This document shows positions 33,496-49,782 of a stretch of DNA of 60,688 bases, piece by piece (the first letter of the stretch is position 1; each line of letters starts with the position of its first letter). The position numbers were made by a program, and so were the translations under genes. The stretch covers positions 1 to 60,688 of the forward strand of contig JAGCDE010000057.1 in assembly GCA_017651315.1 (NCBI GenBank), in the 5' to 3' direction. The DNA comes from Bacteroidaceae bacterium. Lineage in GTDB: Bacteria; Bacteroidota; Bacteroidia; Bacteroidales; Bacteroidaceae. The notes below the pieces were generated by a model, which was not told the origin of the DNA, searched no databases, and was given only the letters and a program-made list of their open reading frames with translations.

Positions 33496-33541
33496 AAAAA
33501 AAGAGACCGGCTAAAAAGCACTTTAGCCAGCCTCTTTTTTA
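33496..33541. terminator. Bidirectional terminator between the esterase and the PIN-domain gene
   Basis: AAAAAAGAG and GGCTAAA on the left pair with TTTAGCC and CTCTTTTTT on the right. A-run and T-run flanks serve both converging genes; it overlaps the end of the PIN gene. Confidence 0.85.
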
Positions 33542-33961
33542 TTTCTCATTGAAGATGAGATTCAATCCCTGTTTACGGTAAAAATCAAAACGTGTATCAC
33601 TGGAAATAAGTGGTATTTTAAGTGTCATGGCATGGGAGATGATAACATGATCACTTGGATCGCGATGGTTCTGGGAGTAGTTGATACGCAATCTTGAATA
33701 CGTATACATCACCTCTTTCTGTATAGGAAAGATTTCAACAAAATAAGTCTCCTCAATAGAACGGACCATATCCTCTGCTGTTTTCCATTTCTTATTGCCC
33801 CAACCTTTATTGTTATAGGCTACAATAAGTTCACGTACACTCTCATTACTGATATACAACAAGGTATCAGGTTCACTAAGCATCGCCATAACATCAGGAC
33901 TAAATTTACCATGGTCAGTGCTCAGGTATATAAAGATGTTTGTGTCAATCAGGTATCTCAT
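33539..33961 (-). CDS. PIN-domain toxin (VapC-like)
   Basis: A 140-residue predicted ribonuclease of a type II toxin-antitoxin pair. PIN acidic residues are all visible: LIDTNIF (first Asp), SVRELIVAY (Glu), HRDPSDHVIISHA (Asp) and LISSDTRFD (Asp). The start MRYLIDTN (33961) is usual for VapC; an ATG at 33970 is also possible. The gene for a 54-residue basic protein ends 16 bases upstream and is the likely antitoxin. Base composition is more AT-rich than the neighbours, in keeping with a mobile toxin-antitoxin module. Confidence 0.88.
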   Translation of the reverse strand: MRYLIDTNIFIYLSTDHGKFSPDVMAMLSEPDTLLYISNESVRELIVAYNNKGWGNKKWKTAEDMVRSIEETYFVEIFPIQKEVMYTYSRLRINYSQNHRDPSDHVIISHAMTLKIPLISSDTRFDFYRKQGLNLIFNEK

Positions 33962-33977
33962 AACAAGCATCTTTATG

Positions 33978-34548: not shown

Positions 34549-35718
34549 ATGAGAAGAAGGACTATCCTAGCATTGATTGCCCTGGTGTCAGCATCTGCTG
34601 TCATTGCATCTCCTGTAGATCCGTAGCGTGCCGTTCAAGTTGCACAACAGTTTGTACCCCAGTCTATATCAGCTTTAAGAACACAAGGTCGAGGTTCGGC
34701 CACGTCACCAGCAGGTAACATCGTATACACCCACAAAATGCCCCAAAGCGACCGCCCGGCATTTTACATAATCAATGTGAATGACGCTTTTGTCATTGTC
34801 AGTGCCGATGACATTGCCCATCAGATCTTAGGATACAGTCTGAGCAAGAACTGGCCTGTATCAAAAGACGGAACAATTGAACTGCCAGCTCATATTAAAA
34901 GTTTCTTTGATGATCTGGCTTCACAAATTGAGGCCGCAATAGACACAGAGCCCAAACAGGTACCCGATGAAGATTGGACCGATTCACGCTCAAGATCTCC
35001 AATGCGTGCTCCAACAAATCTGCCTGACAGCGTAGGTCCGCTGCTTACCACCACATGGGACCAAGGGCAGTATTACAACGCCCTTTGTCCTAAGGATGAG
35101 AATGGCCCAGATGGACATGTCTATACTGGCTGTATTGCCACTGCTATGGCACAAATAATCAAGTATTGGAGTGCTCCCAATCCAGGACTAGGAACACATA
35201 CTTTCGAAACAAACTATGGAGAACTGACCGTAAACTATGAATCAAGCACCTATGACTTTGATAATATGCCGTCTATATTAACCGAGTCATGCTCTCAGCA
35301 ACAAATTTCAGAAGTTGCCAAACTCATGTATAACTGTTGTGTGGCCGCTAATATGAATTATGGTGCAACAGAAAGTAATAACACATATAATGATTTGGTA
35401 GATGCCAACAACGCCTGGGTAGATGCCAACAACGCCAATGGCCAATATCGTCACTGGATGAATGACACTACAAATGTGAATGGAGGTTATCCAATATTTG
35501 CTCCTCTATATATTGATAATGAACAAGAAAACTCCAACATATCAGATGATGAAGTGGGATGGGATAATAACTCTGTGTCATCAAATAAGGCTTATTCCGA
35601 CAAGTCTGCCATCTATGACCTGACAGGAATGAAGATTGAGACGAATGATATTAATGCTCTGCCCTCGGGAATATATATCTCTAACGAGCGCAAGATTCTT
35701 ATCAACGTGAAGGAATAA
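34549..35718 (+). pseudogene. Broken C10 (streptopain-like) peptidase with in-frame TAG
   Basis: Reading from ATG 34549 gives a signal peptide (MRRRTILALIALVSASAVIA), then TAG at codon 26 (34624-34626), then an intact frame from 34627 to the TAA at 35718. After the stop come a Spi-type propeptide (FYIINVNDAFVIVSADD) and the first half of a C10 domain with the nucleophile region YTGCIATAMAQIIKYW. The half with the catalytic His is missing: after AANMNYGATES the sequence passes through a tandem 21-base duplication (two VDANNA units near 35397-35436) into the C-terminal tail IYDLTGMKIE...LPSGIYISNERK. So there is one nonsense codon and one internal deletion; it is probably not functional. Confidence 0.85.
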
Positions 35719-36352
35719 AGCATCTGACCGACATATCAAGAGTCGATAAAGTGGTAATCTGGAAGGTGTGGCAGCCGATGGATTGGGCGGGTAGGATGTC
35801 TTTTTCCTGGCTGTCACCTATCATTACGGTTTCCTCAGGTTGTAGGCCTAATGCTTTCACTCCCAAGCGGAATATCTCCGGATCGGGTTTGCGGACTCCA
35901 ACAACGGCCGATTCTACCACATATTTAAATAGGTAGTCCAGACTGAACTCTTCCAGTACGGTGTGCATATTGCCATAGAAGTTGGTTACCAGGACTATAG
36001 GGTATTGGGTGTGGAGCTTTTGCAAAACGGGCTTGGAGACTGTGGATATATGGCTAACTACATTGTTATAGCATGTATCCAAGATAGTATCCTGTGCCGG
36101 TACAGCAATGCCGTGCAACTGCAGATACTCCATCTGTAGGGCAATCTTAGTCTGCAGGGTCTTGCGAAAAGTATAATCGGGTCCGATGATAGGGTTGTTG
36201 CCTAGTGTGCGCTCGGTGTGAACGTAGGCATCCCACAGCAGTTCATGAGGAATATCGGCCACAAGGGCGTATGCCTCACTGAAGGCATTGAACCAGTGGA
36301 TGCCGTCGGAGTCGATGGTTCCGCCAAAATCTATGAGTATTCCCTTAATCAT
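35702..36352 (-). CDS. HAD superfamily hydrolase with DFGGT nucleophile motif
   Basis: A 216-residue Rossmann-fold hydrolase. Motif I reads LIDFGGTID (Asp8), so the usual second Asp (DxDGT) is Gly; motif II is VLVTNFYG (Thr), motif III the Lys of GVRKPDPEIF, motif IV VMIGDSQEKDI. A helical cap lies at about residues 15-90. Lack of the general-acid Asp is found in some HAD branches, so it may be a slow phosphatase, use another acid, or bind rather than cleave. Its ATG lies eight bases inside the UPF0104 gene, making it the last member of the overlapping run down from the nucleotidyltransferase. Its 3' end overlaps the peptidase relic tail to tail by 17 bases. Confidence 0.88.
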   Translation of the reverse strand: MIKGILIDFGGTIDSDGIHWFNAFSEAYALVADIPHELLWDAYVHTERTLGNNPIIGPDYTFRKTLQTKIALQMEYLQLHGIAVPAQDTILDTCYNNVVSHISTVSKPVLQKLHTQYPIVLVTNFYGNMHTVLEEFSLDYLFKYVVESAVVGVRKPDPEIFRLGVKALGLQPEETVMIGDSQEKDILPAQSIGCHTFQITTLSTLDMSVRCFIPSR

Positions 36353-37352
36353 TCTTACGACCGGTTTTCATAATCAAAACACCTATCACAGTCCACACCA
36401 CCTGACGCAGGCGGGCCACCAATGCGGTGTAAAGTCCGTATGCACCGGGCACCTGAACTCCGCCTGCCGCAAGCGCCATACCGCCTTCATATCCGCCCAT
36501 CTGCATGGGTGAAAAGAATAACAGATTACTGAACAGCGATGAGAATGCCATAACCAGGATACTGTCCCAGAATGTGAATCCGGGCATAAGCATTCCTATC
36601 AGGAGCCAGTACTCAAGGCAAGAAACCACCCGGGCGACGTACTCCAACAGCAACGACCACCAGAACGGAGCGCGACGCTGCGAATGCAGGAACGCTATCT
36701 GGCTGTCAACCTCCTCCATATCGGCACGATGCCTGTCAAGGAAACCGGCTGACCACTTCCTGAGCAGCGGAATCCGGCTGAGCAGGCTGAAAACCTTTAC
36801 CACGAATCCCATGCGGTAACCAAGCGTGAACAGCCACAACACAAACACAAAGACTACGGTCATCACGCCCAGCATAACGCTCATCCATAGGTCCAATCCG
36901 TAACCATCGGCCACAAAATGCAAAACCACGTACAGGGCCACGGCCGACAGCCAGAAACAGAAATGGGAGCAGATATGCATCATGGAGTAAAGTATCACTG
37001 CCGATGTTGCCTTCCGTCCGCCCACATACCTCTGTAGCTCCAATATACGGTAAGGCTCACCCCCCATTAAGCCAAGCGGGGTGACATAGTTCAGCGCATA
37101 GCCCGAGACGGTCAGTTGGAACACCTTGCAAAACGGCACTCCCCTACCCGTCCCGTCATTGATTATCAGCCCGAACGAACAGGCGTTCATAAGATAGATG
37201 CCCCCCCAGAGCAGCACAATGACTGGGAACCATATTCCTGCCTGTGACAATACCTCCCTGACCCTGACCCAATCAGCATCAAAGGTGAGCAGCATCAATA
37301 TAACTGCCGCCACCCCGGACAGGAAGAATAGGGTCTGCCATCGCTTTTTCAT
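36345..37352 (-). CDS. Lysylphosphatidylglycerol synthase TM-region/UPF0104-like membrane protein
   Basis: A 335-residue polytopic protein with about eight hydrophobic segments. Family blocks: the early AWGG-like VLLWGGIYLMNA, then VTPLGLMGGEPYRILEL (matching the PxxxGGEp signature of this family) and a late SPMQMGGYEGGMALAAGG. The family includes the flippase half of MprF and is often found beside lipid or glycolipid synthesis genes. It overlaps the CDP-alcohol transferase gene by four bases and the HAD gene by eight. Inferred role: moving the lipid made by this operon across the inner membrane. Confidence 0.88.
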   Translation of the reverse strand: MKKRWQTLFFLSGVAAVILMLLTFDADWVRVREVLSQAGIWFPVIVLLWGGIYLMNACSFGLIINDGTGRGVPFCKVFQLTVSGYALNYVTPLGLMGGEPYRILELQRYVGGRKATSAVILYSMMHICSHFCFWLSAVALYVVLHFVADGYGLDLWMSVMLGVMTVVFVFVLWLFTLGYRMGFVVKVFSLLSRIPLLRKWSAGFLDRHRADMEEVDSQIAFLHSQRRAPFWWSLLLEYVARVVSCLEYWLLIGMLMPGFTFWDSILVMAFSSLFSNLLFFSPMQMGGYEGGMALAAGGVQVPGAYGLYTALVARLRQVVWTVIGVLIMKTGRKND

Positions 37353-38272
37353 ATCAGGCCCATCATTTCACGGCACACTTTTTCATGCGCCGCCCTCATG
37401 TAAAAGAAAATCACGTTCATTACAGTTAGCTCGAAAATGAAGTAAATCCAAGGCATTCCGGCCAATAGGGTTATGTAAAGCACTATGGCGCGGGTATTGA
37501 ACGTGGAAATGTTTGTCCATTTGAGAAGTCCGTACGTGCGGCGGCAGAACTCCCGGCCAAGTTCTGGCGGGATCTCATCTCCATACTTGCCGCGAAGAGC
37601 GGAACGGAACTCCTGAAAACAGGGAGTCATCCGCTCCTGTGTGCGGGTATAACCCTGATAGAAGAAGAGCCATATCTTCCAGAACCAGCGCTCACGCCAC
37701 GGTGTGCCGCGTTGCTGCCCTGCAAGTTCCGTGCTGTCATTGAGTTCCGAGCTGTCACCGTGGAACAGCAGATAGATATTGCGGTAGTAATCGGCCAGGC
37801 CTGCCTGACGTGAGTGGAACAGTATGCTTGACACAAACTCGAGCACCCATATCCATATACCCCACGCCCTGCCACCGCCAAAAGGCATCGGCTCGGGCGT
37901 AAGCCTGACAGCCAGGAAAACGTATATGGATGCAAACCACAGATCACCGGCAAAACCGTCTAACAAACGGCCCCACAATGTTTTCTTGCCGGTCATGCGG
38001 GCGAGCTGTCCGTCAGCACTGTCCAGGAAATTGGCCAGCATGAGCATCATTATGCCCAGAATGGTCCAGCCCATTGTGGCATGCCACCAGCAGAATCCGG
38101 CAAACACACCGAGGAAGATTGAAATGACGGTCACCACATTGGGATGTACCCCCATTGCGCCGAACATACGCGCAAACAGCAGTCCGACAGGCCTTGTGAA
38201 CCATATATCCAGCCACTCTTCAGTATCCTTTGACTTGAATGTGGCTTCAACCGCCCTTTTTCTTTCAGTCAT
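37349..38272 (-). CDS. CDP-alcohol phosphotransferase family membrane protein
   Basis: A 307-residue integral membrane enzyme that would join a CDP-activated alcohol to a second alcohol. The start at 38272 forms an ATGA overlap with the previous stop; longer frames to 38326 are less likely. The signature is at residues 84-110: DSADGQLAR, eight residues, then GRLLDGFAGD. Six of the eight motif positions are standard, but the last catalytic Asp, expected three residues after D105, is Gly109 with Asp displaced by one to position 110. About six hydrophobic segments surround it, with a soluble insertion (about residues 170-245). Substrates are unknown; the neighbouring nucleotidyltransferase probably makes its CDP-donor. 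Confidence 0.88.
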   Translation of the reverse strand: MTERKRAVEATFKSKDTEEWLDIWFTRPVGLLFARMFGAMGVHPNVVTVISIFLGVFAGFCWWHATMGWTILGIMMLMLANFLDSADGQLARMTGKKTLWGRLLDGFAGDLWFASIYVFLAVRLTPEPMPFGGGRAWGIWIWVLEFVSSILFHSRQAGLADYYRNIYLLFHGDSSELNDSTELAGQQRGTPWRERWFWKIWLFFYQGYTRTQERMTPCFQEFRSALRGKYGDEIPPELGREFCRRTYGLLKWTNISTFNTRAIVLYITLLAGMPWIYFIFELTVMNVIFFYMRAAHEKVCREMMGLI

Positions 38273-39093
38273 CCCGTTCTGCCGATTATAAGTTCCGATA
38301 TCTTCCGTGCCGCTTCTACCGTACATGTACGGAAGCTTGGCCAGTCATTGAAATCTATCAGGGTTATTTCACCGTCCGGACCCACGACAGCGTCACCGCC
38401 GAACACATCAAGATCCAGCATACGTGACGCCCGTTCCACCATCGCTGCGAGAGTTTCCATACTGACACCGGAAGAATCGGGGCGTTCATTATACCGTTCC
38501 TGACCGAACCTGCTATCCTTCAATGAGACAGCGTAGCAGTCCGTGATTCCGGCACCTCTTATCCCATAAAACTTGGCCACCCATCCGCACACGTGATCCT
38601 GGAGTACACATGTATCTATACCACGCCCAGCGAAAGCCCGCATCGCGGCATTACACTCGGCTACATTCCGCAAAAAAAGCACGTCACCGGGCTCCATGGA
38701 ATGGCTGTCACCCCGCTTGATCCAGCAGGGATAACGGTCCCACACATCCGCCCCTCCGCAGGTACTGCAAACCAGGCTTTCCGGAATAAGTCCCGAATCC
38801 TTCAGGATCTCCGTCTGTATGGCACGGCCGCAGTTCTTTACCGCTCTTGCGGAATTGGTCACAGGAACAGTCGCGTTTTCCAGAACCGCAAGCACCTCTC
38901 GGCTTCGTGCCATCTGGAATATACCGTCTATACCGTCAGGAATACCTTGCCGTACCAGTTCCTGCCCGGTCATGCAGAGCACCTCGTTCCCCTGACGCTC
39001 CAATTCGGCAACTACTGCATGGAACACGGCAGCATCGCCCTCCACACGGTTCGGCGAGAATATCTCCTCCCTGCTTACTCCAAGATACCTCAT
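38269..39093 (-). CDS. ATP-grasp-like protein of unknown substrate
   Basis: A 274-residue soluble protein. The C-terminal third reads like the ATP/Mg site of ATP-grasp ligases: LDVFGGDAVVGPDGEITLID followed by FNDWPSF, with acidic metal ligands; PCWIKRGDSHSMEPGDVLFL in the middle resembles the ATP-binding Lys strand. N-terminal segments (GNEVLCMTG, DGIFQMARS) look Rossmann-like. ATP-grasp enzymes join a carboxylate to an amine or thiol through an acyl-phosphate, or phosphorylate small molecules such as inositol phosphates. It overlaps both neighbours by four bases, so it belongs to the lipid/phosphodiester operon and may modify its head group. Assignment is by motif only. Confidence 0.75.
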   Translation of the reverse strand: MRYLGVSREEIFSPNRVEGDAAVFHAVVAELERQGNEVLCMTGQELVRQGIPDGIDGIFQMARSREVLAVLENATVPVTNSARAVKNCGRAIQTEILKDSGLIPESLVCSTCGGADVWDRYPCWIKRGDSHSMEPGDVLFLRNVAECNAAMRAFAGRGIDTCVLQDHVCGWVAKFYGIRGAGITDCYAVSLKDSRFGQERYNERPDSSGVSMETLAAMVERASRMLDLDVFGGDAVVGPDGEITLIDFNDWPSFRTCTVEAARKISELIIGRTG

Positions 39094-39785
39094 CCCTCCA
39101 ATGCTATCTGTCCGGCTTTCTGCACATCACTCAGATGGTCCACGTCAATCACCCGACCCAAGTCGAAAGCCTTGAGTCTCATTCCCTCCTCAATCAGACT
39201 GCGCTGGAAAAGGCGCATTCTCCTGCCACCAGACTCCACACATTCTGACAGGACATCGAGAGCTGCCGGTTTCAGGCAATAGACTCCGGCTGACACGAAC
39301 CGGCATCCTTCCGCCAAATCGTGGAATCCTTTTATAACCATTGACTCATCCACGCCTACATAGAGAGGTTTCTCGTCATCGACAAATGATGTCACTCCCA
39401 TAATCCCGTCAAACCCTGTCTGTTTGAACTCACTTACCATTTCGGAGAACCGTTTTTCCTGAAAGACGGTATCAACCGTCATTGCACAGAACCGGTCACA
39501 TGCAAGGAATGGAGCAAGTGCAAGGAGACTGTGCATGGGAGACGGAGTGTCCCTTACCACGAAGTCAATGGGCATCCTCAGGGACATGCTCTCAAGCAGG
39601 GCACGGGTGTCGGGTGACTGTTCATTGATTATGACGGCTATACGGTCAGCGTCCTGACGCATGAGAATTCCGGCAAGACGCTCTATCATGGGAACTCCGC
39701 CAATCGGGACCAAAGGCTTCGGCACATCCAGACCCTCCTCCGCAAGACGGCTTCCTTCACCGGCTGCAATTATGGCATAACGCAT
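39090..39785 (-). CDS. Nucleotidyltransferase (sugar/inositol-phosphate NTP transferase type)
   Basis: A 231-residue GT-A-fold enzyme. The N-terminus carries the NTP-binding signature IIAAGEGSRLAEEG then PKPLVPIGGVPMIERL; VDTVF (about residue 107) is the metal-binding Asp region, and RVIDVDHLSDVQ near the end is the second metal site. Such enzymes couple a sugar-1-phosphate or inositol-1-phosphate with NTP. With a CDP-alcohol phosphotransferase two genes downstream, CTP is the likely nucleotide: a separated version of the IPCT/DIPPS pair is one reading. It starts 24 bases after pdxA and overlaps the ATP-grasp gene by four. Confidence 0.88.
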   Translation of the reverse strand: MRYAIIAAGEGSRLAEEGLDVPKPLVPIGGVPMIERLAGILMRQDADRIAVIINEQSPDTRALLESMSLRMPIDFVVRDTPSPMHSLLALAPFLACDRFCAMTVDTVFQEKRFSEMVSEFKQTGFDGIMGVTSFVDDEKPLYVGVDESMVIKGFHDLAEGCRFVSAGVYCLKPAALDVLSECVESGGRRMRLFQRSLIEEGMRLKAFDLGRVIDVDHLSDVQKAGQIALEG

Positions 39786-39809: not shown

Positions 39810-40901
39810 TTATTCCCTGTCGCCGTCAAGCTGCTTGAGCTTGTCGCTGTCATCCCTGCGGTCAAAGAAGAGCTTGCGCAACGGATTGGCACTGATTTCA
39901 GCTTCATTACGGCGGGAGCGGTATATGTCAATGGCAGTAAAAATAGCCTGACGGAGGGATTGCTCGCTGGCCACGCCCTTTCCGGCAATGTCATACGCAG
40001 TTCCGTGATCCGGTGATGTGCGCACCACGGGAAGGCCGGCAGTGAAATTGACTCCACACTCCATATCAAGGGTTTTGAGAGGTATCAGGCCCTGGTCATG
40101 ATACATGGCCAGAACGGCATCAAACATCCGGTAGTCCCCGCCGCCGAAGAATCCGTCAGCAGGAAATGGTCCGAAACACTGGATACCGTCTGCGGAACAC
40201 TCCTTTATGGCTGGCTTGATCATAGTCTCCTCCTCATTACCGATAAGTCCGTCATCACTGGCATGAGGATTCAAAGCCAGTACTGCGATACGGGGAATCT
40301 CTATCCCGAAATCGACCTTGAGGGAGTTATGCAGAATTGTTATCTTCTCCTTTACCAGATCTTTGCTGAGGAGTGAAGCCACCTTCGATATAGGCTCATG
40401 TACTGTCACCAGAGCCACCCTCATGGCACTGTTCATAAGTATCATAAGAGCTCTCCTCCCTTCGCCCAGTTCCGATTCAAGGTACTCAGTATGACCCATG
40501 AAACTGAACTTGTCCGAATGGATGCTCCTCTTATTTATGGGAGCGGTCACGAGCACATCTATCATTCCTTCCCTATACTCCTTCACAGCACGCTCAAGAG
40601 CATTGAAAGCTGCATTTCCACTCTCTGCAGTCGGTATGCCAAGATCCACCTTTACGTCCTCGGAGCAGCAGTTCACCAGGTTCAGACGGTCAGGTACAGC
40701 TTCCGAAGCGTTGTTGACCACATTGAAATTGGTCTGGGAATCAACCGCCTTCCTGTGATAAGTCGCTATCTTCGGGGAACCGTACAGCACAGGGGTACAG
40801 AACTCGAACATTGAGGAATCCTCAAATGTCTTCAGGATAATCTCGTAACCTATCCCGTTTACATCACCGTGGGTGATGCCCACCTTTATTCTATTATTCA
40901 T
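39810..40901 (-). CDS. pdxA: 4-hydroxythreonine-4-phosphate dehydrogenase
   Basis: Oxidises 4-phosphohydroxy-L-threonine in pyridoxal phosphate synthesis (DXP-dependent route). 363 residues with all metal-binding histidines: FSFMGHTEYLE, LALNPHASDDG and AMYHDQGLIPLK. It starts KVGITHGDVNGIGYEII (usually GDPxGIG), and the active-site block TAPINKRSIH and VNFTAGLPVVRTSPDHGTAYD are present. The C-terminal 35 residues form a charged extension. It overlaps the DUF4837 gene by eight bases; pdxA-DUF4837-rlmN is an order I recall from other Bacteroidales. Confidence 0.96.
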   Translation of the reverse strand: MNNRIKVGITHGDVNGIGYEIILKTFEDSSMFEFCTPVLYGSPKIATYHRKAVDSQTNFNVVNNASEAVPDRLNLVNCCSEDVKVDLGIPTAESGNAAFNALERAVKEYREGMIDVLVTAPINKRSIHSDKFSFMGHTEYLESELGEGRRALMILMNSAMRVALVTVHEPISKVASLLSKDLVKEKITILHNSLKVDFGIEIPRIAVLALNPHASDDGLIGNEEETMIKPAIKECSADGIQCFGPFPADGFFGGGDYRMFDAVLAMYHDQGLIPLKTLDMECGVNFTAGLPVVRTSPDHGTAYDIAGKGVASEQSLRQAIFTAIDIYRSRRNEAEISANPLRKLFFDRRDDSDKLKQLDGDRE

Positions 40902-41958
40902 CGTCCGGATTGATTGTTATCTCTTCTAACTTGAAATTGTTGGTATCCTCGTCAATCTCATCAGGAAGCCTGAGAGTGTAAAGAGCGGCTTCCATACGGC
41001 GCATAAGGCCCTTCTTGGAATCACCCGGGGCATATACGAACCCTTCCACCACGATTACTCTCTGGTTCTTTTCATCCACCCTGGAGATACTGACGAAAGG
41101 ACCTCCCATATCGTAATTCTTCATATCCCACAAGCCTCTTGCTATCTGGGCATACTTTCCCTTTACCTCGGCATCCCGTACCTTGACGAACTCGCGGGTG
41201 GTAGTCATGTACTGCCCTTCACGGGGCCCGGGAATGTTTCTCTGCATGACGGAGTCCCGCTTGTCGAAGAAATACCCGGCCGTAAAGGTGTTGGCATCGG
41301 TATAAGGATATGAGTATATCACGAAATTCATGTCCCTTTCACCCCTGTCGGTACTTGCCCAGAGGAAGTTCTTTGCAGTCTTCATCCGTCTCAGGTCCTC
41401 CGGCACATAAACGTCACAGCCGAATATGTCCTGGACCTTCTCTTCGATGACGGGGTGATGACTACGTTTGAGATGCTCCACCTCACGGTTTATCTCCACC
41501 TTGTCGAAAAAAGTGAGGATTGAACCGCCGCTTTTTTCAAGAAACTTCTTGAACCCGGCTATATCCGGGGCCTGGATGGTCATGACTATCTGAGGCGATG
41601 CATACACGTCCCTTGAGAACTTGTATTTGGCCTGTGTGAACATCCGGTCTATCTTCACGATGATAATGTTCCTGCAATAGCGGTGGGAACGCGTGAAATC
41701 CCTGCTTGTAGTCTTGGAAACCTTGAAGAACTCCTCTGACTGTGGCAATCCGGGAATATCGTCGGTAAGGACCTCGTGAAGAGCGTCATACACCCCGTTC
41801 TGAAAATCCTCAGGATCAGCCACCACAAGCATCTCATAGGGTGCCCCTGTGGCTGTGGGGGTCATGATGGATTTCTTGTTGCTGCTTCCGCCAGTACAGG
41901 AGACTAATGCGAGAAGCATGACCGGCAATAGCGCCGCAGAGAATCTGACGTTTTTCAT
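40894..41958 (-). CDS. DUF4837 family lipoprotein
   Basis: A 354-residue exported lipoprotein. The signal peptide MKNVRFSAALLPVMLLALVSC ends in a lipobox. The mature part begins with a Ser/Thr-rich linker and the family opening GAPYEMLVVADPEDFQNG; later blocks include RNIIIVKIDR, FLWASTDRGERDMNFVIYSYPY and GGPFVSISRVDEKNQRVIVVEG. Members are restricted to Bacteroidetes and lack a known function. The gene follows rlmN after 25 bases and overlaps pdxA, so it belongs to a housekeeping operon without an obvious functional link to either. Confidence 0.9.
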   Translation of the reverse strand: MKNVRFSAALLPVMLLALVSCTGGSSNKKSIMTPTATGAPYEMLVVADPEDFQNGVYDALHEVLTDDIPGLPQSEEFFKVSKTTSRDFTRSHRYCRNIIIVKIDRMFTQAKYKFSRDVYASPQIVMTIQAPDIAGFKKFLEKSGGSILTFFDKVEINREVEHLKRSHHPVIEEKVQDIFGCDVYVPEDLRRMKTAKNFLWASTDRGERDMNFVIYSYPYTDANTFTAGYFFDKRDSVMQRNIPGPREGQYMTTTREFVKVRDAEVKGKYAQIARGLWDMKNYDMGGPFVSISRVDEKNQRVIVVEGFVYAPGDSKKGLMRRMEAALYTLRLPDEIDEDTNNFKLEEITINPDDE

Positions 41959-41983: not shown

Positions 41984-43075
41984 CTATTCTACCTTTCCCG
42001 CCAAGACAGGGTTAACGGGTTCCCTCTGTCCTTCCCGCTTGACGGAAACGCCGCTTTTTTCCTGTTCCGAAGTACTGAGCATTCCGCAGGCGGCCCAGAT
42101 ATCCTCACCTCGCGATGCCCTTATGGTGGCGAACACGCCATGTGCCGTAAGCCAGTCACGGAACTCCGCCATACGTCCTTCCGGTACGGGACGCAGGGGA
42201 CTGTCCGGAATGGCATGGAAACGGATCAGGTTTACCCTGCAGCTCAGCCCGTGCAGGGCTTTCACGAGCTGGCGGGCATCATCAGGAGAGTCATTAACGC
42301 CATCGAACATGGTGTACTCAAATGAAAGACGGCGCTGGTGGCTGAAATCATACCGGCGCAACACCTCCAACATCTCAGTCATGGAAAACGCCTTCTCAGC
42401 CGGGATAAGCTCCCTGCGTTTCTCCGGCGTAGGGGCGTGCAGGCTGACCGCTATATGGCACTCGCAACCCTCAATGAGCTGTTTGAGCTCCCGTCGCAGA
42501 CCTACTGTCGAGATTGTGATACGCTTTGGACTCCATCCGAACCCCCAGGGGGCCGTAAGAATCTCCTGCACGGCAAGCACGTTCTCAAGATTATCGAGCG
42601 GTTCACCCATGCCCATGAATACCACATTCGTCAAGGTCTCCTTTCCCGGAAGTGAAAGTATCTGGTTGAGTATCTCGCCTGCGGTGAGGCTGGCGGTATA
42701 TTGCTGACGGCCCGTCATGCAGAAGATACAGCCCATCTTACACCCCACCTGACTTGAAACACAGAGGGTGGCGCGGTCTCCATCCGGAATATAGACAGTC
42801 TCCACGGAGTGGCCGTTCCGTACCGGGAACAGGAACTTGACCGTTCCGTCATCCGATGCAGCATTGAGTGACGGTTCAGACAGGCCCACCTCATAGTTTT
42901 CAGCAAGCATAGCCCTGTGCTTGAGCGAGATATTGGTCATGGAGTCTATCGAGCTGACCTGCTTCACATAAAGCCAGTCGGCCAGCTGTCTGGCAGTGAA
43001 CAATGGCATACCGTTCTCCACGGCCACCTGCTGCAGCTGCGCCAGCGTCATTCCTACAAGATTCTTCCTGCCCAT
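41984..43075 (-). CDS. rlmN: Dual-specificity rRNA/tRNA adenine-C2 methyltransferase
   Basis: Radical-SAM enzyme that methylates C2 of A2503 in 23S rRNA and A37 of some tRNAs. 363 residues. The 4Fe-4S motif is SQVGCKMGCIFCMTGRQ; other blocks are VFMGMGEPLDN, TISTVGLRREL, SLHAPTPEKRRELIP and the C-terminal RASRGEDIWAACGML, whose Cys receives the methyl group. The C-terminal 25 residues are variable and charged. It heads the eight-gene minus-strand run; a -7 element (43099-43106) leaves a leader of about 20 bases. Confidence 0.96.
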   Translation of the reverse strand: MGRKNLVGMTLAQLQQVAVENGMPLFTARQLADWLYVKQVSSIDSMTNISLKHRAMLAENYEVGLSEPSLNAASDDGTVKFLFPVRNGHSVETVYIPDGDRATLCVSSQVGCKMGCIFCMTGRQQYTASLTAGEILNQILSLPGKETLTNVVFMGMGEPLDNLENVLAVQEILTAPWGFGWSPKRITISTVGLRRELKQLIEGCECHIAVSLHAPTPEKRRELIPAEKAFSMTEMLEVLRRYDFSHQRRLSFEYTMFDGVNDSPDDARQLVKALHGLSCRVNLIRFHAIPDSPLRPVPEGRMAEFRDWLTAHGVFATIRASRGEDIWAACGMLSTSEQEKSGVSVKREGQREPVNPVLAGKVE

Positions 43076-43133: not shown

Positions 43134-44471
43134 ATGATACAGACCATCGATTTACCCCAGTACGGAAGTTCGACACAGCATGTCAGAGACACGCTGAAAG
43201 CATACCGTAACCAATATCTCCTGCTCAATCTATGCGGTAGGGAAGTGACCGTTACCGAAGAGGCCGTGGAGCGCATGAAACAGTGCGCCGGCTCCGCACA
43301 TGCAGGACTAGTATATTCAGACTATCTCAAGACTATGGGATCCGACTCCATAGTTCCCGCACCGCTGACTGACCTTCAGGAAGGCAGCCTCAGGGATGAC
43401 TTTGATTTCGGTGCATTGGTGCTGCTCACGCCCACCGGAATTGAAGCATATCTGTCCTTTGAGGGAGAGGAATTCAAAACCGCAGGGTTCTATCAGATGC
43501 GCCTGGCAATACAGCGTTCCCTTCCCATTGTGCGCATACCTCAGCCGCTCTACATCATTGCAGAGACTGATTTCCGCACCTCGGGACAGAAACAGTTCGA
43601 CTATGTGAACCCGCGCAACCGCGATGTCCAGATTGAGATGGAGGCAGCATGTACCGAACATCTGAAACTGGTTGGCGGCTACCTCAAACCCGGATCGGGG
43701 CAGGCTGTGGATGTCGATGAAGGCTGTTTTCCTGTCCTTGCATCGGTCATCATACCTGTCCGCAACCGCGCCCGCACTATTGCCGATGCCGTGAAGTCCG
43801 CACTCAGCCAGCAGTTGGACGGAACATACAACGTGATTGTTGCAGATAACCATTCCACTGACGGGACCACGCAGATCCTGAGCAGTCTGGCATCCCAAGA
43901 CTCCCGTCTTGTCCACATCATACCGGAGCGGACCGATCTGGGGATTGGAGGATGCTGGAACCTTGCCGTGAACGACAGCCGCTGCGGAAGGTTTGCTGTC
44001 CAGCTTGACAGCGACGACCTTTACAGCGGACCAGATACGCTTCAAAAGATAGTTGACAAATTCCACGAAGGTGGTTACTCTATGGTGATAGGCAGCTACC
44101 GCATGTGCAACTTCGACCTTGAGACTTTGCCACCGGGCATAATCGACCATCGCGAATGGACCGATGAGAACGGTCCCAACAACGCACTGAGAATAAACGG
44201 CCTTGGAGCACCTCGTGCATTCTACACTCCGGTAGTACGTTCAATAGGATTCCCCAACGTAAGCTACGGAGAGGATTATGCAGTAGCCATCCGCATCGCC
44301 GGTGAATACCGCATAGGCCGGATCTTTGACGAGCTTTACCTGTGCCGTCGCTGGGAGGGCAACAGCGACGCAGCACTGAGCCCCGAGAAAGTCAATTTAA
44401 ATAATATTTACAAAGATTCGCTCCGCACAGCCGAGTTGCAGAGACGGATCGACAGTAATCTCAACCGCTGA
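43134..44471 (+). CDS. Family 2 glycosyltransferase with an extra N-terminal domain
   Basis: A 445-residue transferase. The GT2 catalytic domain begins near residue 200: [36 protein letters not shown] and [11 protein letters not shown] (metal-binding DxD), then [12 protein letters not shown] and a late [10 protein letters not shown]. The first 190 residues resemble a second, degraded GT-A-like domain ([30 protein letters not shown]) without a clear DxD. No membrane segment or signal is seen, so it is cytoplasmic. The stop TGA overlaps the ATG of the HIT-SpoIID gene by one base, implying shared function. Donor and acceptor unknown. Confidence 0.88.
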
Positions 44472-46657
44472 TGCAAGACATATTCAATCATCTGGGCACC
44501 ATTCTGGAGGAACAGCTCCGGGATTGGCCCGCTGCCCGTGAGGCTTTCCGTAATCTGGAAAAGGTACAGACCCGCATACTCTCCTCATCGGGACTTGCCC
44601 TCCAGCACAACCCGGCACGTATTATCTCGACAACTGCCAGGATCAAGCCTGCGGAGATAGCCGCCCGTTCCTGTTTCCTGTGTGAGGATTGCCGCCCAAA
44701 GGAGCAGCGTTCCATAGAGCTGGATGACAGGTTCTACCTGTTAGTCAACCCATACCCCATACTCCGCGAGCATTTCTGTGTGGTGAGCCGCGAGCATCGC
44801 CCTCAGCTGTTCAGGGACTGTTACGTGGAGATGCTCTCCATCGCATCCCGTCTGGAGCCCGGCTACATGATATTCTACAACGGTCCCCGCAGCGGGGCAT
44901 CGGCACCGGACCACCTTCACATGCAGATTGGACGGGCCGAGGGAATACCGCTTGTTGACAAGCTGCGGCTGAACGAACCGCCAGCCTCTGACGGGCCAGT
45001 CACCATCCAGCCGTTCGGATTCCCTGTGACAGTGATCAAGGGCTCTGACCCGGCAAGACTATGGGAATGCGTGAGCGGCATGTCCATATACGACGGCGAG
45101 AATGAGCCGCGCATGAACGTGCTCTCATTCAACCGCGACGGCCAGGTCATAACCGCCATAATCCCGCGAGGCAAGCATCGCCCTGACTGTTACTACGCCG
45201 AGGGAACAGACAAGATCATGGTCAGTCCGGGCGCGGTCGATATGTTCGGGCTGGTAATCACTCCGCGAAAAGAGGATTTCGACAGACTTACAGAGCGTCA
45301 GGTTCTGGACATTTACCGTCAGGTCACGCCTCAGCAGCCATGTATCAAGGTGGGAGTCATGGCCGCAAGCGAGATCCGTTTCCGCCTGAACGGAAGTTAC
45401 ACCGACGGCCGCGGCATCCTCGAAGGCGAGATGTCGGTCACTGCCTCAGGAGGAATGCTCTTCTGGAACGGCATGCAGACAGGAAGCCTCACCTTTAAGC
45501 CTGACGGAAACGGAAGCACCTTCACGCTTCATGACGTGACCATCGGCATAGGGTTCCATTGGGAGCGCAAAGAGGACCAGACATTCTCCGGTTCGCTTCA
45601 TTTCATCCCCGAAGGCAATATGGTGCGTGCCGTGAACATACTGCCCGTGGAGGAGTATCTCACCAGCGTCATTTCATCCGAGATGAAACCCACTGCCAGT
45701 CGCGAGTTTCTCCGGGCACACGCAGTGATTTCCCGCAGCTGGGTACTGGCGCAGCTGCGCTCACCATACCGCAATGCATTTGTGACCGATGGAGCCGGTG
45801 TTCCTGCACCATCTGCACACGATCATATCCTGAACCGCATTATAAAATGGTACGACCATGACCAGCATACCCAGTTCGATGTCTGTGCCGATGACCACTG
45901 CCAACGCTATCAGGGGCTGACACGCATAATAAGCGCAGCCGCCCAGGCCGCAGTCAAGGACACCTTCGGGCAGACCCTGGTGTTTGACGGCCATCTGTGC
46001 GACGCCCGTTTCAGCAAATGCTGCGGTGGCGTGACCGAGCAGTTCGAGACCTGCTGGCAGGACGAGCACAAGCCCTATCTGTCAGCCTTGCGTGACAGCA
46101 GTGTGAATGAAGGTCCCCTGCCTGACCTTACCGACGAGGAGAACGCCCGCAAATGGATTCTCTCCGAACCCAAATCATTCTGCAACTCTGCCGACGGCAA
46201 CATCCTGGCTGAATCACTGAACGGCTACGACCTGGAGACACCGGACTATTACCGATGGCGAGTGGAATACACCGTGGAGCAGATATCGGACATATTCCGC
46301 CGCAAAACAGGATTGGATATCGGTGATATTGTTGACCTACGTCCCGTTAGACGAGGCCCATCCGGTCGTATCTGTGAACTTGAGATTGAGGGCAAAGACA
46401 GCTCTGTAACCATAGGCAAGGAACTTGAAATACGCCGCGCACTTTCCGAGAGCCATCTGTTCAGCAGCGCATTCACGGTTGAGAGAACAACCGATGAAAA
46501 CGGCATCCTAAAGGGTTTTGTGCTGCACGGAGCCGGCTGGGGCCACGGAGTCGGCCTGTGCCAGATAGGAGCCGCCGTCATGTCCGCCAAAGGCTATACC
46601 TACCGCGAAATCCTCCGTCATTACTATCCCGGCACCACCCTTGGCCGCTTCTATTGA
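44471..46657 (+). CDS. Fusion of a HIT-like (DUF4922) domain and a SpoIID/LytB domain
   Basis: A 728-residue two-part protein. Residues about 1-300 read as a GalT/AP4A-phosphorylase-like HIT protein: CFLCEDCRP (possible zinc site), YLLVNPYPILREHFCVVS and SAPDHLHMQIG, the HxHxQ catalytic motif. Residues about 300-728 are SpoIID/LytB: VEEYLTSVISSEMKP, RAHAVISRSWVLAQL, FSKCCGGVTEQFETCW, and the terminal GAGWGHGVGLCQIGAAVM with YYPGTTL. SpoIID-type domains bind or cut denuded peptidoglycan glycan outside the cytoplasm, while HIT phosphorylases are cytoplasmic, and no signal peptide is present. The arrangement with a GT2 partner suggests glycan turnover; location and reaction are open. Confidence 0.88.
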   Translation: MQDIFNHLGTILEEQLRDWPAAREAFRNLEKVQTRILSSSGLALQHNPARIISTTARIKPAEIAARSCFLCEDCRPKEQRSIELDDRFYLLVNPYPILREHFCVVSREHRPQLFRDCYVEMLSIASRLEPGYMIFYNGPRSGASAPDHLHMQIGRAEGIPLVDKLRLNEPPASDGPVTIQPFGFPVTVIKGSDPARLWECVSGMSIYDGENEPRMNVLSFNRDGQVITAIIPRGKHRPDCYYAEGTDKIMVSPGAVDMFGLVITPRKEDFDRLTERQVLDIYRQVTPQQPCIKVGVMAASEIRFRLNGSYTDGRGILEGEMSVTASGGMLFWNGMQTGSLTFKPDGNGSTFTLHDVTIGIGFHWERKEDQTFSGSLHFIPEGNMVRAVNILPVEEYLTSVISSEMKPTASREFLRAHAVISRSWVLAQLRSPYRNAFVTDGAGVPAPSAHDHILNRIIKWYDHDQHTQFDVCADDHCQRYQGLTRIISAAAQAAVKDTFGQTLVFDGHLCDARFSKCCGGVTEQFETCWQDEHKPYLSALRDSSVNEGPLPDLTDEENARKWILSEPKSFCNSADGNILAESLNGYDLETPDYYRWRVEYTVEQISDIFRRKTGLDIGDIVDLRPVRRGPSGRICELEIEGKDSSVTIGKELEIRRALSESHLFSSAFTVERTTDENGILKGFVLHGAGWGHGVGLCQIGAAVMSAKGYTYREILRHYYPGTTLGRFY

Positions 46658-46687: not shown

Positions 46688-47392
46688 TTACCGGTTGAGC
46701 CAGATACGGCGCTCTGATTCGGGGAATTTCTCTATGGCGTACCTGAGCATGGTGCGGGGCATGGCGTGACAACGCGGTTCGAGCCAGTCCTTCAGAGCCT
46801 GTACGTCACGCTTTCCCGCCTCACGCAGCAGCCAGCCCACGGCCTTGTGTATCAGGTCGTGGGGATGGTCTATCAGGATATCGGCTATGGCGTATGTATC
46901 GGCTGTCTGGCCGTGACGGATGAACTGCATGGTGCTTACCATCCCTATCCGCTGTTCCCAGACAGTCTTGCCGTTACGCGCCAGGTCATACAGGATGGTG
47001 CGGTCCTTGTCAAGCAGCCATGTCCCGAGCAGAGGGTAGCATGACAGATCGACCAGATCCCAGTTATTGATAGAATCCGTATGTGACAGATAGAAACCGA
47101 CACACTCTTTCTGCAATTTCAGGTTTTTCCTGTTATGACTGAATATCTCCACCAGCGTAAGGAGGGAGGCGAGCCGTACTTCGTGGTACCTGCAGGTGAC
47201 ACACTCCTCCAGATCCTTAAAATCCACATCCTTCCAACAGGACTTGACCACCTCACGGGTCACAGGCACTTTAATACCGAGGAACGTATCGCCCTCACCG
47301 TACTGTCCGGGACCGGTCTTGAAGAATCGCATCAGCCCCTCCACCTGGGCAGGGTCAGCATGCCGCAACATCTCATCATACAGTTTATTCAT
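46688..47392 (-). CDS. DNA alkylation repair protein (AlkD-like HEAT-repeat glycosylase)
   Basis: A 234-residue all-helical protein made of HEAT-like repeats. The AlkD signature is intact: FLGIKVPVTREV at the first repeat, DSINNWDLVDLSCYPLLG with the catalytic-region Trp and Asp, WEQRIGMVSTMQFIRHG (the Arg that contacts the phosphate backbone) and DLIHKAVGWLLREAGKRD. AlkD excises bulky or cationic alkyl bases such as 3-methyladenine and 7-methylguanine without base flipping. It overlaps the MurU-like gene by eight bases, so it shares that operon, although no functional link to cell-wall salvage is evident. Confidence 0.93.
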   Translation of the reverse strand: MNKLYDEMLRHADPAQVEGLMRFFKTGPGQYGEGDTFLGIKVPVTREVVKSCWKDVDFKDLEECVTCRYHEVRLASLLTLVEIFSHNRKNLKLQKECVGFYLSHTDSINNWDLVDLSCYPLLGTWLLDKDRTILYDLARNGKTVWEQRIGMVSTMQFIRHGQTADTYAIADILIDHPHDLIHKAVGWLLREAGKRDVQALKDWLEPRCHAMPRTMLRYAIEKFPESERRIWLNR

Positions 47393-48128
47393 AGTATTTA
47401 CGGATTATCTGTGCGGCAAGTTCAAGAGCTTCGGGCTTTCCGGCATCCACCCAGTCCGAAGCTTCGCTTTCCGTCATACGGAATTTCAGACGGCCTGAAT
47501 TGGCTACATAGAAATCCGTTATTCCAAATTTCTGTCCAGGAACGACATCAAGCTGTGCCAGCACATTGCGGGATATGACATGTATCCCCTGAAATGCGTA
47601 TGGAACGAACCTGGACTTGTCAAACCCAGGCAAAGGTGAGCGTATCTCGCCTGTTTTCTCATTGCTCCACCCGCACAATGCGCCCTCCTGACTGAAATAC
47701 AGATGGCGTGATGTGTTGCGGCGGGCTGTGAGCAGAGTGGCATCGGCCCCGCTGTCAAGATGGTTCAGATACAGACTGCAAAGGTCCGTTCCTGAGAATA
47801 TGTCCACATTATGGACCAGCACAGGCTGTTCATCGTCAAACAGGCGCATGGCCTTGCGGATACCTCCGCCGGTATCAAGCAGCATGCCGCTCTCATCGGA
47901 CAGACGGATGTCGAGTCCGAAATTGTCATGCTCACCGAGATAATCCCTGACCTTTGTGGCAAAATGGTGTATGTTTATCACGAAATGACCGAATCCCGCT
48001 GCTGACAGGTGACGAAGCTGATGCTCCAACATGGTACGTCCCCTAACCTCGACAAGAGCCTTTGGGCGGTCTGAAGTCAGTTCGCCCAGGCGGGTCCCGA
48101 GTCCGGCTGCAAGTATGAGTGCATTCAT
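47385..48128 (-). CDS. MurU-like nucleotidyltransferase (MurNAc-1-phosphate uridylyltransferase type)
   Basis: A 247-residue sugar nucleotidyltransferase starting MNALILAAGLGTRLGEL (ATGs at 48134 and 48170 are also in frame). Motifs: RPKALVEVRGRTMLEHQL (sugar-phosphate-binding Lys), LLDTGGGIRKAM, VLVHNVDIFSG (metal Asp) and TDFYVANSG. This pattern matches MurU-type enzymes that make UDP-MurNAc during peptidoglycan recycling. The gene directly upstream encodes an AmgK-like anomeric kinase, the partner of MurU in Pseudomonas, which strengthens the call. Alternative: another NDP-sugar pyrophosphorylase. No start codon with a ribosome-binding site distinguishes the starts. Confidence 0.85.
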   Translation of the reverse strand: MNALILAAGLGTRLGELTSDRPKALVEVRGRTMLEHQLRHLSAAGFGHFVINIHHFATKVRDYLGEHDNFGLDIRLSDESGMLLDTGGGIRKAMRLFDDEQPVLVHNVDIFSGTDLCSLYLNHLDSGADATLLTARRNTSRHLYFSQEGALCGWSNEKTGEIRSPLPGFDKSRFVPYAFQGIHVISRNVLAQLDVVPGQKFGITDFYVANSGRLKFRMTESEASDWVDAGKPEALELAAQIIRKYYE

Positions 48129-48159
48129 AAGCATATCTTTATGAAACCCTGACAAAAAA

Positions 48160-49605: not shown

Positions 49606-49782
49606 AATGTGACCAGACATATTCCAATATACCTCCAATGCACCTGCCCACACTATCAACTACTTACCTGCCCCGACCCTTTCACCGGTATTTGGAACAG
49701 GAACCGGAACGGAAGCGGATAACGGCAAGGATTGCTCTCTTTAATAATTGGTTAATATTTCACCAAAAATGCAATAAGCGTT

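What the first reader, a model, noticed from the sequence alone, without database searches (positions are those of the whole stretch)
35702..39785. Five-gene overlapping operon that looks like a complete undescribed polar-lipid or phosphodiester pathway
Seen: nucleotidyltransferase, ATP-grasp, CDP-alcohol phosphotransferase, UPF0104-type membrane protein and HAD hydrolase lie head to tail with overlaps of 4, 4, 4 and 8 bases. Known: inositol-lipid and di-inositol-phosphate pathways use a cytidylyltransferase, a CDP-alcohol phosphotransferase and a phosphatase; LPG-type membrane proteins flip lipids. Inference: X-phosphate is activated to CDP-X, joined to a lipid or alcohol, dephosphorylated and flipped, with the ATP-grasp protein modifying the head group. 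No inositol-phosphate synthase is present, and the ATP-grasp member does not belong to the known inositol clusters, so the head group may be new.
Basis: partly seen in the sequence, partly recalled or inferred. Interest (0 to 1): 0.8.

Follow-up and report, generated by a model that had tools for sequence, protein, structure and literature searches.

The report
Bacteroidales alternative inositol-lipid gene cluster
Five overlapping genes in this gut-type bacterium belong to an already proposed, still untested route for making inositol-containing membrane lipids, and comparison suggests that its unexplained ATP-grasp member may be an inositol-phosphate kinase.

Summary
In detail: five minus-strand genes (39785 to 35702) overlap by 4, 4, 4 and 8 bases. 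All five lie together in 63 of 80 loci fetched with the ATP-grasp protein.

Domains and order match the "putative alternative inositol-lipid cluster" of Heaver 2022 (PMC9246714), proposed to make PI/PI-dihydroceramide through CDP-inositol. "No inositol-phosphate synthase" is wrong genome-wide: a MIPS lies on another contig. Of 29 sampled genomes of the order with the ATP-grasp gene, 28 carry a PF07994 MIPS and the 29th an Ino1-type MIPS. Of 10 with MIPS but no ATP-grasp gene, 9 carry BT_1523-type synthase. Exceptions: G028, G457.

New here: (1) the ATP-grasp profile matches ITPK inositol-phosphate kinases (6.9e-8), though 7drm, a ligase, scores better and the fold is LysX/RimK-like; I propose an ATP-grasp/HAD kinase-phosphatase pair. 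(2) The CDP-alcohol phosphotransferase has Gly for the catalytic Asp4. (3) Outside the order the cluster gains an IolG-like dehydrogenase, aminotransferase and Mla genes.

Nothing was tested biochemically.

The parts
39090..39785 (-). NTP: nucleotidyltransferase, probable CTP:inositol-phosphate cytidylyltransferase
   Evidence: Pfam NTP_transf_3 1.1e-12; PDB hits: best 5xhw 3.5e-7 (6-deoxy-D-mannoheptose pathway protein), 4jd0 3.2e-6, A. fulgidus IPCT 2xme 4.5e-4; R13, K23 and D105 invariant in 39 of 39, the counterparts, as I read them, of R16, K26 and D112 named in PMC12275187 for 4JD0 (T. maritima IMPCT) and CpgD
38269..39093 (-). ATPG: ATP-grasp protein, proposed ITPK-like inositol-phosphate kinase
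37349..38272 (-). CAP: CDP-alcohol phosphotransferase, lipid-forming step; fourth signature Asp replaced by Gly109
36345..37352 (-). LPG: PF03706 (LPG_synthase_TM) membrane protein, probable lipid flippase
   Evidence: Pfam 6.1e-21; HpnL and MprF sub-threshold
35702..36352 (-). HAD: HAD-superfamily hydrolase, proposed phosphatase of the inositol intermediate; motif I is DxGGT
   Evidence: PF00702 1.3e-16; D8, G10, G11, T12, K155, D180, D185 invariant in 39 of 39
39810..40901 (-). PdxA (4-hydroxythreonine-4-phosphate dehydrogenase), co-directional neighbour, probably co-transcribed
   Evidence: PF04166 1.7e-110; near the cluster in 52 of 80 loci
40894..41958 (-). DUF4837 protein, co-directional neighbour
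   Evidence: PF16125 1.2e-101
41984..43075 (-). RlmN-type radical SAM methyltransferase, first gene of the co-directional run
   Evidence: PF04055 and PF21016

Best explanation
The five genes are the 'alternative' inositol-lipid pathway of Bacteroidota. A MIPS encoded elsewhere in this genome makes inositol 3-phosphate. The nucleotidyltransferase activates an inositol phosphate with CTP, the CDP-alcohol phosphotransferase passes the phosphoinositol to a lipid alcohol (dihydroceramide and/or diacylglycerol), and the PF03706 protein moves the lipid across the membrane. The ATP-grasp protein and the HAD protein act as a kinase/phosphatase pair on the inositol: my preferred scheme is that the ATP-grasp enzyme phosphorylates the MIPS product at a second position, that phosphate is the one activated and transferred, and HAD then removes the original phosphate, leaving plain PI or PI-dihydroceramide with the usual D-1 linkage. 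Shown: gene content, family assignments, conservation, co-occurrence and fusions. Inferred: every reaction. Separate odds: inositol-lipid pathway 0.85; CDP-inositol-type donor 0.7; ATP-grasp is an inositol(-phosphate) kinase 0.45; HAD a phosphatase on the inositol or PI-phosphate intermediate 0.5; the exact order given here 0.25. The confidence below is for the statement as a whole read as an inositol-lipid pathway with a CDP-inositol donor.
For: Identity: same domains and order as Heaver's putative alternative cluster. Linkage to MIPS: 28 of 29 ATP-grasp genomes among 228 sampled have a PF07994 MIPS, against 10 of 199 without ATP-grasp (Fisher 2e-26, relatedness not corrected); the 29th (G201) has an Ino1-type MIPS directly after HAD; MIPS within 6 kb in 23 of 29 plus G201 (positions compared by eye). 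MIPS genomes lacking ATP-grasp carry BT_1523-type PIPS in 9 of 10, against 4 of 28 with it. Product: B. vulgatus and P. veroralis, which lack the BT genes, make PI-DHC; P. copri DSM 18205 makes DHC-PI, and another strain of that species, L058, carries the cluster. Fusions: NTP-ATPG in 4 loci, NTP-ATPG-CAP, ATPG-CAP and LPG-HAD. Module loss: in G167 the CAP gene stays beside RlmN and PdxA while NTP, ATP-grasp and HAD are gone from the locus, and ATP-grasp and a PF07994 MIPS from the genome. Kinase: ITPK hits, with D-x-N-x-x-P-[SG]-[FY] shared with three ITPKs where 7drm has E-L-N; ITPK1 is reported to phosphorylate Ins3P, the MIPS product (PMC12077091 passages). PI-DHC carries no extra group, as a transient phosphorylation would leave it.
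Against: The best PDB hit of the ATP-grasp profile is 7drm, titled only 'ATP-grasp domain-containing protein' (a graspetide ligase, recalled), 8.6e-9; the fold is nearest carboxylate-amine ligases, with no ITPK among the 50 rows shown; no member of 57 hits an ITPK Pfam model at E<=0.01. The ITPK catalytic residues named in PMC12077091 could not be mapped. HAD motif I lacks the second Asp. CAP lacks the catalytic base Asp4. G028 (96% complete) has the whole cluster and no MIPS by PF07994 or PF01658; G010 and G019 (80-81% complete) likewise have the ATP-grasp gene and no MIPS, and G015 (80%) the reverse. G457 has the cluster and no PF01658 match (PF07994 not run on it), with a PfkB kinase beside it. 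G165 has ATP-grasp in a BT-type cluster without alternative NTP or CAP, which a kinase serving only CDP-inositol does not explain. Cer-PI is only about 1% of sphingolipids in B. vulgatus.
Confidence: 0.7

Rival explanations
1. Heaver's original scheme: NTP makes CDP-inositol straight from the MIPS product, CAP joins it to diacylglycerol, and HAD converts PI-DAG to PI-dihydroceramide like AUR1; the ATP-grasp gene is accessory. (Same pathway identity as the best explanation, so the odds overlap.)
For: Published proposal (PMC9246714 section 10). NTP has the three conserved IMPCT-type residues; CAP fold nearest AF2299/IPCT-DIPPS.
Against: Gives no role to an ATP-grasp gene that is conserved, fused to NTP or CAP and absent together with MIPS in G167. 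I know of no HAD-family lipid transferase of this kind (recalled); the BT_1522-type PI-DHC synthase in L045 is a PAP2-family protein.
Confidence: 0.2
2. The ATP-grasp protein is a ligase (RimK/LysX/graspetide type) that attaches an amino acid or other carboxylate to the head group, so a decorated inositol lipid is the true product. (Also shares the inositol-lipid identity.)
Against: Species expected to carry this cluster were reported to make plain PI-DHC. The metal-site triplet is D-x-N as in ITPKs, not E-x-N as in 7drm. Clusters without the aminotransferase keep the ATP-grasp gene.
Confidence: 0.2
3. The product is a soluble phosphodiester such as a di-inositol phosphate: NTP and CAP work like archaeal IPCT-DIPPS and HAD removes the remaining phosphate.
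For: CAP's nearest folds are AF2299 and Af IPCT-DIPPS, which PMC4634129 says do not process lipids; NTP plus CAP plus phosphatase fits that pathway.
Against: A flippase-type gene in 63 of 80 loci; Mla lipid-transport genes inside the cluster outside the order; PI-DHC made by species that lack BT_1522/23/25.
Confidence: 0.07
4. One reading: an undescribed head group unrelated to inositol.
For: No MIPS in the window; G028 and G457 carry the cluster with no detected MIPS (for G457 only PF01658 was run).
Against: Near-complete co-occurrence and frequent linkage with MIPS; a MIPS in this genome.
Confidence: 0.04

Closest known systems
Putative alternative inositol-lipid cluster of Bacteroides/Phocaeicola vulgatus and Prevotella (Heaver et al. 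2022, PMC9246714)
   Same: NTP transferase, CDP-alcohol phosphotransferase and HAD in one cluster with an LPG-type gene; genome with MIPS and no detected BT_1523-type synthase.
B. thetaiotaomicron inositol-lipid cluster BT_1522/1523/1525/1526
   Same: Starts from MIPS, uses a PF01066 enzyme, ends in PI-dihydroceramide; a lysylphosphatidylglycerol-synthase-type gene nearby.
   Different: The two systems merge in L041, L045, L059 and L071.
Archaeal IPCT-DIPPS and AF2299
   Same: Cytidylyltransferase-type domain plus CDP-alcohol phosphotransferase; nearest CAP folds.
   Different: Both domains in one protein, Asp at the D4 position in the AF2299 alignment, no lipid substrate according to PMC4634129.
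ITPK inositol-phosphate kinases (ATP-grasp)
   Same: Significant profile similarity (6.9e-8) centred on the D-x-N metal site.
   Different: No ITPK Pfam match; overall fold nearest LysX/RimK.
Four-gene CDP-alcohol cluster from Parabacteroides libraries (Boba-seq, PMC11300592, passages only)
   Same: Contains a paralogue of this CAP (L094, L096, L097, L098, L106), also without Asp4.
   Different: Paired with a glycerol-3-phosphate-type cytidylyltransferase, an SDR and a GlsA-like acyltransferase (typed in L097; relatives in the others); no ATP-grasp or HAD in those stretches. That these loci are the paper's cluster is my match by domain list.

Membership tests
Alternative inositol-lipid cluster (Heaver 2022) | NTP transferase, CDP-alcohol phosphotransferase and HAD hydrolase clustered | tested here: met
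Alternative inositol-lipid cluster (Heaver 2022) | MIPS present in the genome | tested here: met
   PF07994 E 1.4e-93 at G000:C55
Alternative inositol-lipid cluster (Heaver 2022) | MIPS directly in the vicinity (usual, with exceptions such as P. copri) | tested here: not met
   Different contig from the window; the paper allows exceptions
Alternative inositol-lipid cluster (Heaver 2022) | No BT_1523-type PIPS in the genome | tested here: met
   No NF052561 match at E<=0.001 in G000; the genome is 83% complete, so absence is not certain; BT_1522 and BT_1525 types not searched
Alternative inositol-lipid cluster (Heaver 2022) | Direct sequence match to BVU_RS13095/13105/13115 | not tested
   P. 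vulgatus record not fetched; same gene order in P. sartorii L023 and P. massiliensis L057
Class I CDP-alcohol phosphotransferases | Fold | tested here: met
Class I CDP-alcohol phosphotransferases | Signature D1xxD2GxxAR...GxxxD3xxxD4 | tested here: not met
   D1-D3 present; D4 is Gly in 46 of 46 and in 104 of 107 CAP-like ORFs, with one Ser, one ORF without the motif and one (L043) misread by the pattern (ORFs seen in more than one locus not removed)
HAD phosphatases | Motif I DxD | tested here: not met
   DxG in 39 of 39; DxGGT in 92 of 95, 3 unmatched
HAD phosphatases | Nucleophile Asp, motif III Lys, motif IV Asp pair | tested here: met
   D8, K155, D180, D185 invariant
ITPK inositol-phosphate kinases | Match to curated family models | tested here: not met
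   No ITPK model among Pfam hits of 57 members at E<=0.01
ITPK inositol-phosphate kinases | Profile-level sequence relation | tested here: met
   E 6.9e-8, 1.5e-5 and 1.2e-4 to three ITPKs; not exclusive, 7drm scores better
ITPK inositol-phosphate kinases | Catalytic residues H167, K199, R212 (human ITPK1 numbering) | tested here: inconclusive
   Alignments do not reach these positions reliably
ITPK inositol-phosphate kinases | Nearest fold | tested here: inconclusive
   LysX/ArgX/RimK on top; ITPK not among the 50 rows
BT_1523-type PIP synthase | NF052561 above cut-off 350 | tested here: not met
   12.7 bits

The most novel reading that the evidence does not exclude
Bacteroidota carry a bacterial ITPK-like inositol-phosphate kinase that works inside lipid synthesis: it phosphorylates the MIPS product so that a second phosphate can be activated as CDP-inositol and transferred by a CDP-alcohol phosphotransferase without the canonical catalytic base, and a HAD phosphatase then strips the first phosphate, which sets the stereochemistry of the lipid. 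Outside the order the same module with an IolG-like dehydrogenase, a class III aminotransferase and a second ATP-grasp copy makes amino-inositol lipids exported by an Mla system.
Probability: 0.3. Interest if true: 0.77.

Novelty: new member of a known kind. Interest (0 to 1): 0.5.

Why it matters
How Prevotella/Segatella and Phocaeicola, major gut bacteria, make inositol sphingolipids is open: the 2022 proposal rests on gene clusters and lipid detection, and a 2023 paper says it remains to be validated (PMC10056535 passages). Naming the ATP-grasp and HAD members as a candidate kinase/phosphatase pair, and showing that the transferase lacks a residue described as absolutely conserved, turns that proposal into a short list of enzyme assays. 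If the kinase holds, ITPK-type inositol-phosphate kinases, reported from eukaryotes and Lokiarchaeota (PMC8024741 passages), would extend into bacteria.

Tried and rejected

ATP-grasp as a plain RimK relative: sub-threshold in NCBIfam, 1 of 57 members in Pfam; not adopted, though the fold agrees. No ITPK chain appears among the 50 VIA rows; this is no evidence of absence.

Weak matches: G065 and G168 (43 and 39 bits) and the matches under 32 bits were dropped before counting. The threshold of 190 bits was mine and was used; the within-genus counts use E<=0.001 and include matches of 160-176 bits and split genes.

A CAP-HAD fusion in L104 was suspected from a 519-aa frame; the CAP match lies in another frame, so it was rejected. 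The IspD-like gene beside CAP in G167 may be the ordinary IspD; it is found in no other fetched locus and is not used as evidence.

Promoter and terminator scans: counts near shuffled expectation (8 vs 8.7; 9 vs 6.6); no use made. GC of the five genes (0.48-0.55) is close to the window (0.51), no sign of recent import.

A search for aminocyclitol/amino-inositol phospholipids in Bacteroidetes listed one review that I did not open. Searches listed no paper that, from its title or the passages read, assigns the ATP-grasp member; only the held open library was searched, no supplements, no preprints.

From memory, not from a call: MIPS product stereochemistry (D-Ins3P = L-Ins1P), the DIP pathway, PI-PLC preference for D-PI, 7drm being a graspetide ligase, AmgK/MurU.


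Full report
WHAT IS THERE. The five genes lie on the minus strand between 39785 and 35702 and overlap by 4, 4, 4 and 8 bases as reported; the third gene is taken to start at the ATG at 38272. Domains: NTP transferase; a protein with no Pfam family (ATP-grasp by predicted structure); CDP-alcohol phosphotransferase PF01066; PF03706 membrane protein; HAD hydrolase. RlmN, DUF4837 and PdxA lead into them on the same strand.

CONSERVATION. All five genes lie within 6.5 kb, centre to centre, in 63 of 80, four in 10, three in 6 and two in 1. The loci were chosen by the ATP-grasp gene, so this shows company, not how often the other genes occur alone. MIPS lies inside 30 of the 80 loci, although flanks were at most 6 kb. 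Fusions tie the proteins together: NTP-ATPG in L015, L042, L058 (Segatella copri) and L101; ATPG-CAP in L007; NTP-ATPG-CAP in L093; LPG-HAD in L015, L022 and L042.

ALREADY PROPOSED. Heaver et al. 2022 (PMC9246714; section 10 read, other passages) found that B. vulgatus and P. veroralis make PI-dihydroceramide without the B. thetaiotaomicron genes, and proposed an alternative cluster of NTP transferase, CDP-alcohol phosphotransferase and HAD near MIPS. In their scheme CDP-inositol and diacylglycerol give PI-DAG, and HAD turns PI-DAG into PI-DHC. The functions were 'not confirmed'. The B. vulgatus tags they give (RS13095, RS13105, RS13115) are spaced as if one gene lay between each pair; I infer these are the ATP-grasp and PF03706 genes, which occupy those places in P. 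sartorii (L023) and P. massiliensis (L057). 'ATP-grasp' does not occur in the main text. Two 2023 papers repeat the proposal as not yet validated (PMC10191378 passages; PMC10056535 passages).

MIPS. This genome has a MIPS, 1.4e-93, on another contig. In 228 genomes of the window's order (Bacteroidales, judged from the titles; all but this genome at least 90% complete), the ATP-grasp gene (over 190 bits) occurs in 29; two weak matches of 43 and 39 bits were dropped. A PF07994 MIPS occurs in 38, among them 28 of the 29. The 29th, G201, has an Ino1 of the TIGR03450 type (374 bits, cut-off 638) directly after HAD, so two different MIPS lineages have joined the cluster. Comparing positions by eye, MIPS lies within 6 kb in 23 of the 29, plus G201. 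Of 10 genomes with MIPS and no ATP-grasp gene, 9 carry a strong BT_1523-type PIPS (over 250 bits) and one (G266) does not; 4 genomes have both systems. Fisher tests gave 2e-26 and 4e-5; they ignore relatedness.

EXCEPTIONS. In this genus, 33 of 37 genomes have an ATP-grasp match and 31 of 37 have MIPS. G028 (96% complete) has the whole cluster and no MIPS of either model; G010 and G019 (80-81% complete) also have the ATP-grasp gene and no MIPS; G015 (80%) has MIPS and no ATP-grasp match. G457 (100% complete, another order of the same class) has the cluster and no PF01658 match (PF07994 was not run on it), but a PfkB-family kinase follows HAD, which could be an inositol kinase; that is a guess. 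In G167 the CAP gene remains beside RlmN and PdxA while NTP, ATP-grasp and HAD are missing from the locus, and ATP-grasp and a PF07994 MIPS from the genome; its congener G064 has all four. I read this as loss of the inositol module in one go; PF01658 and genome-wide NTP and HAD searches were not run on G167.

WHY A KINASE AND A PHOSPHATASE. The lipid reported from likely carriers is plain PI-DHC, so a lasting decoration is not needed. If CDP is put on the MIPS phosphate itself, the lipid would be linked through the 3-position (D numbering, from general knowledge). A second phosphorylation, activation of that phosphate and later removal of the first would give the usual 1-linkage and uses both otherwise unexplained genes. 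A variant does the same job: HAD frees inositol from the MIPS product and the ATP-grasp enzyme re-phosphorylates it at position 1. The preferred order is a hypothesis, about 0.25.

OTHER FORMS. In L041, L045, L059 and L071 the ATP-grasp gene heads a run with relatives of the BT-type genes (PgpA, GtrA, PIPS and PI-DHC synthase in all four by tblastn, typed by models in L045 only), then CAP, HAD and, in three of the four fetched stretches, MIPS; an acyltransferase is seen in three; NTP is not in the stretch but elsewhere in those genomes. G165 has ATP-grasp with GtrA, PIPS, PI-DHC synthase and MIPS relatives and no alternative CAP or NTP match. Outside the order, 10 genomes of the 296 have an ATP-grasp match over 190 bits (G457, G419, G455, G337, G298, G491, G391, G341, G399, G395). 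In eight of these (all but G457 and G395) the cluster reads NTP-[MlaE, MlaF, MlaD-like]-ATPG (one or two in tandem)-[class III aminotransferase]-CAP-[Gfo/Idh oxidoreductase]-LPG-HAD-MIPS, the bracketed genes varying. The bracketed families were checked by models in L136 only: Aminotran_3, IolG-like GFO_IDH_MocA 6e-19 (68 bits, cut-off 355), MlaE and MlaD. G298 has two clusters, one with the extra genes and two ATP-grasp copies and one without. An amino-inositol head group is my inference.

VERDICT. The finding is real but is a member of a pathway already proposed in 2022; the head group is very probably inositol. What is new is the reading of the ATP-grasp and HAD members, the missing Asp4 and the wider forms.

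Noticed in passing
   Followed up: partly
L094, L096, L097, L098, L106: A paralogous CAP cluster with a glycerol-3-phosphate-type cytidylyltransferase, an SDR, a GlsA-like acyltransferase and, in L096-L098, an LPG-type gene; its CAP also lacks Asp4. Resembles the four-gene cluster in PMC11300592.
   Followed up: partly
L041, L045, L059, L071: BT-type and alternative inositol-lipid genes merged in one run headed by the ATP-grasp gene.
   Followed up: partly
L093 (G201): 820-aa NTP-ATPG-CAP fusion followed by LPG, HAD and an Ino1-type (TIGR03450) MIPS.
   Followed up: yes
L036: A locus titled Roseburia sp. MAG carries the Bacteroidales-type cluster; the title may be a mislabel or a contaminated bin.
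   Followed up: no
window 34738-35718 (+): Peptidase C10 ORF with Spi inhibitor domain, converging on HAD with a 17-base overlap; the C10 profile is matched only in part (1-123 of 194), so the gene looks incomplete.
   Followed up: no
window 33539-33970 (-): PIN-domain protein with a short ORF just upstream, like a VapBC-type toxin-antitoxin pair.
   Followed up: no
window 48160-49659 (-) and 47385-48170 (-): APH-type kinase fused to a RapZ C-terminal domain, overlapping an NTP transferase; possibly an AmgK/MurU-like cell-wall recycling pair (recalled).
   Followed up: no
window 44471-46657 (+): One protein joins DUF4922 to a SpoIID domain.
   Followed up: no
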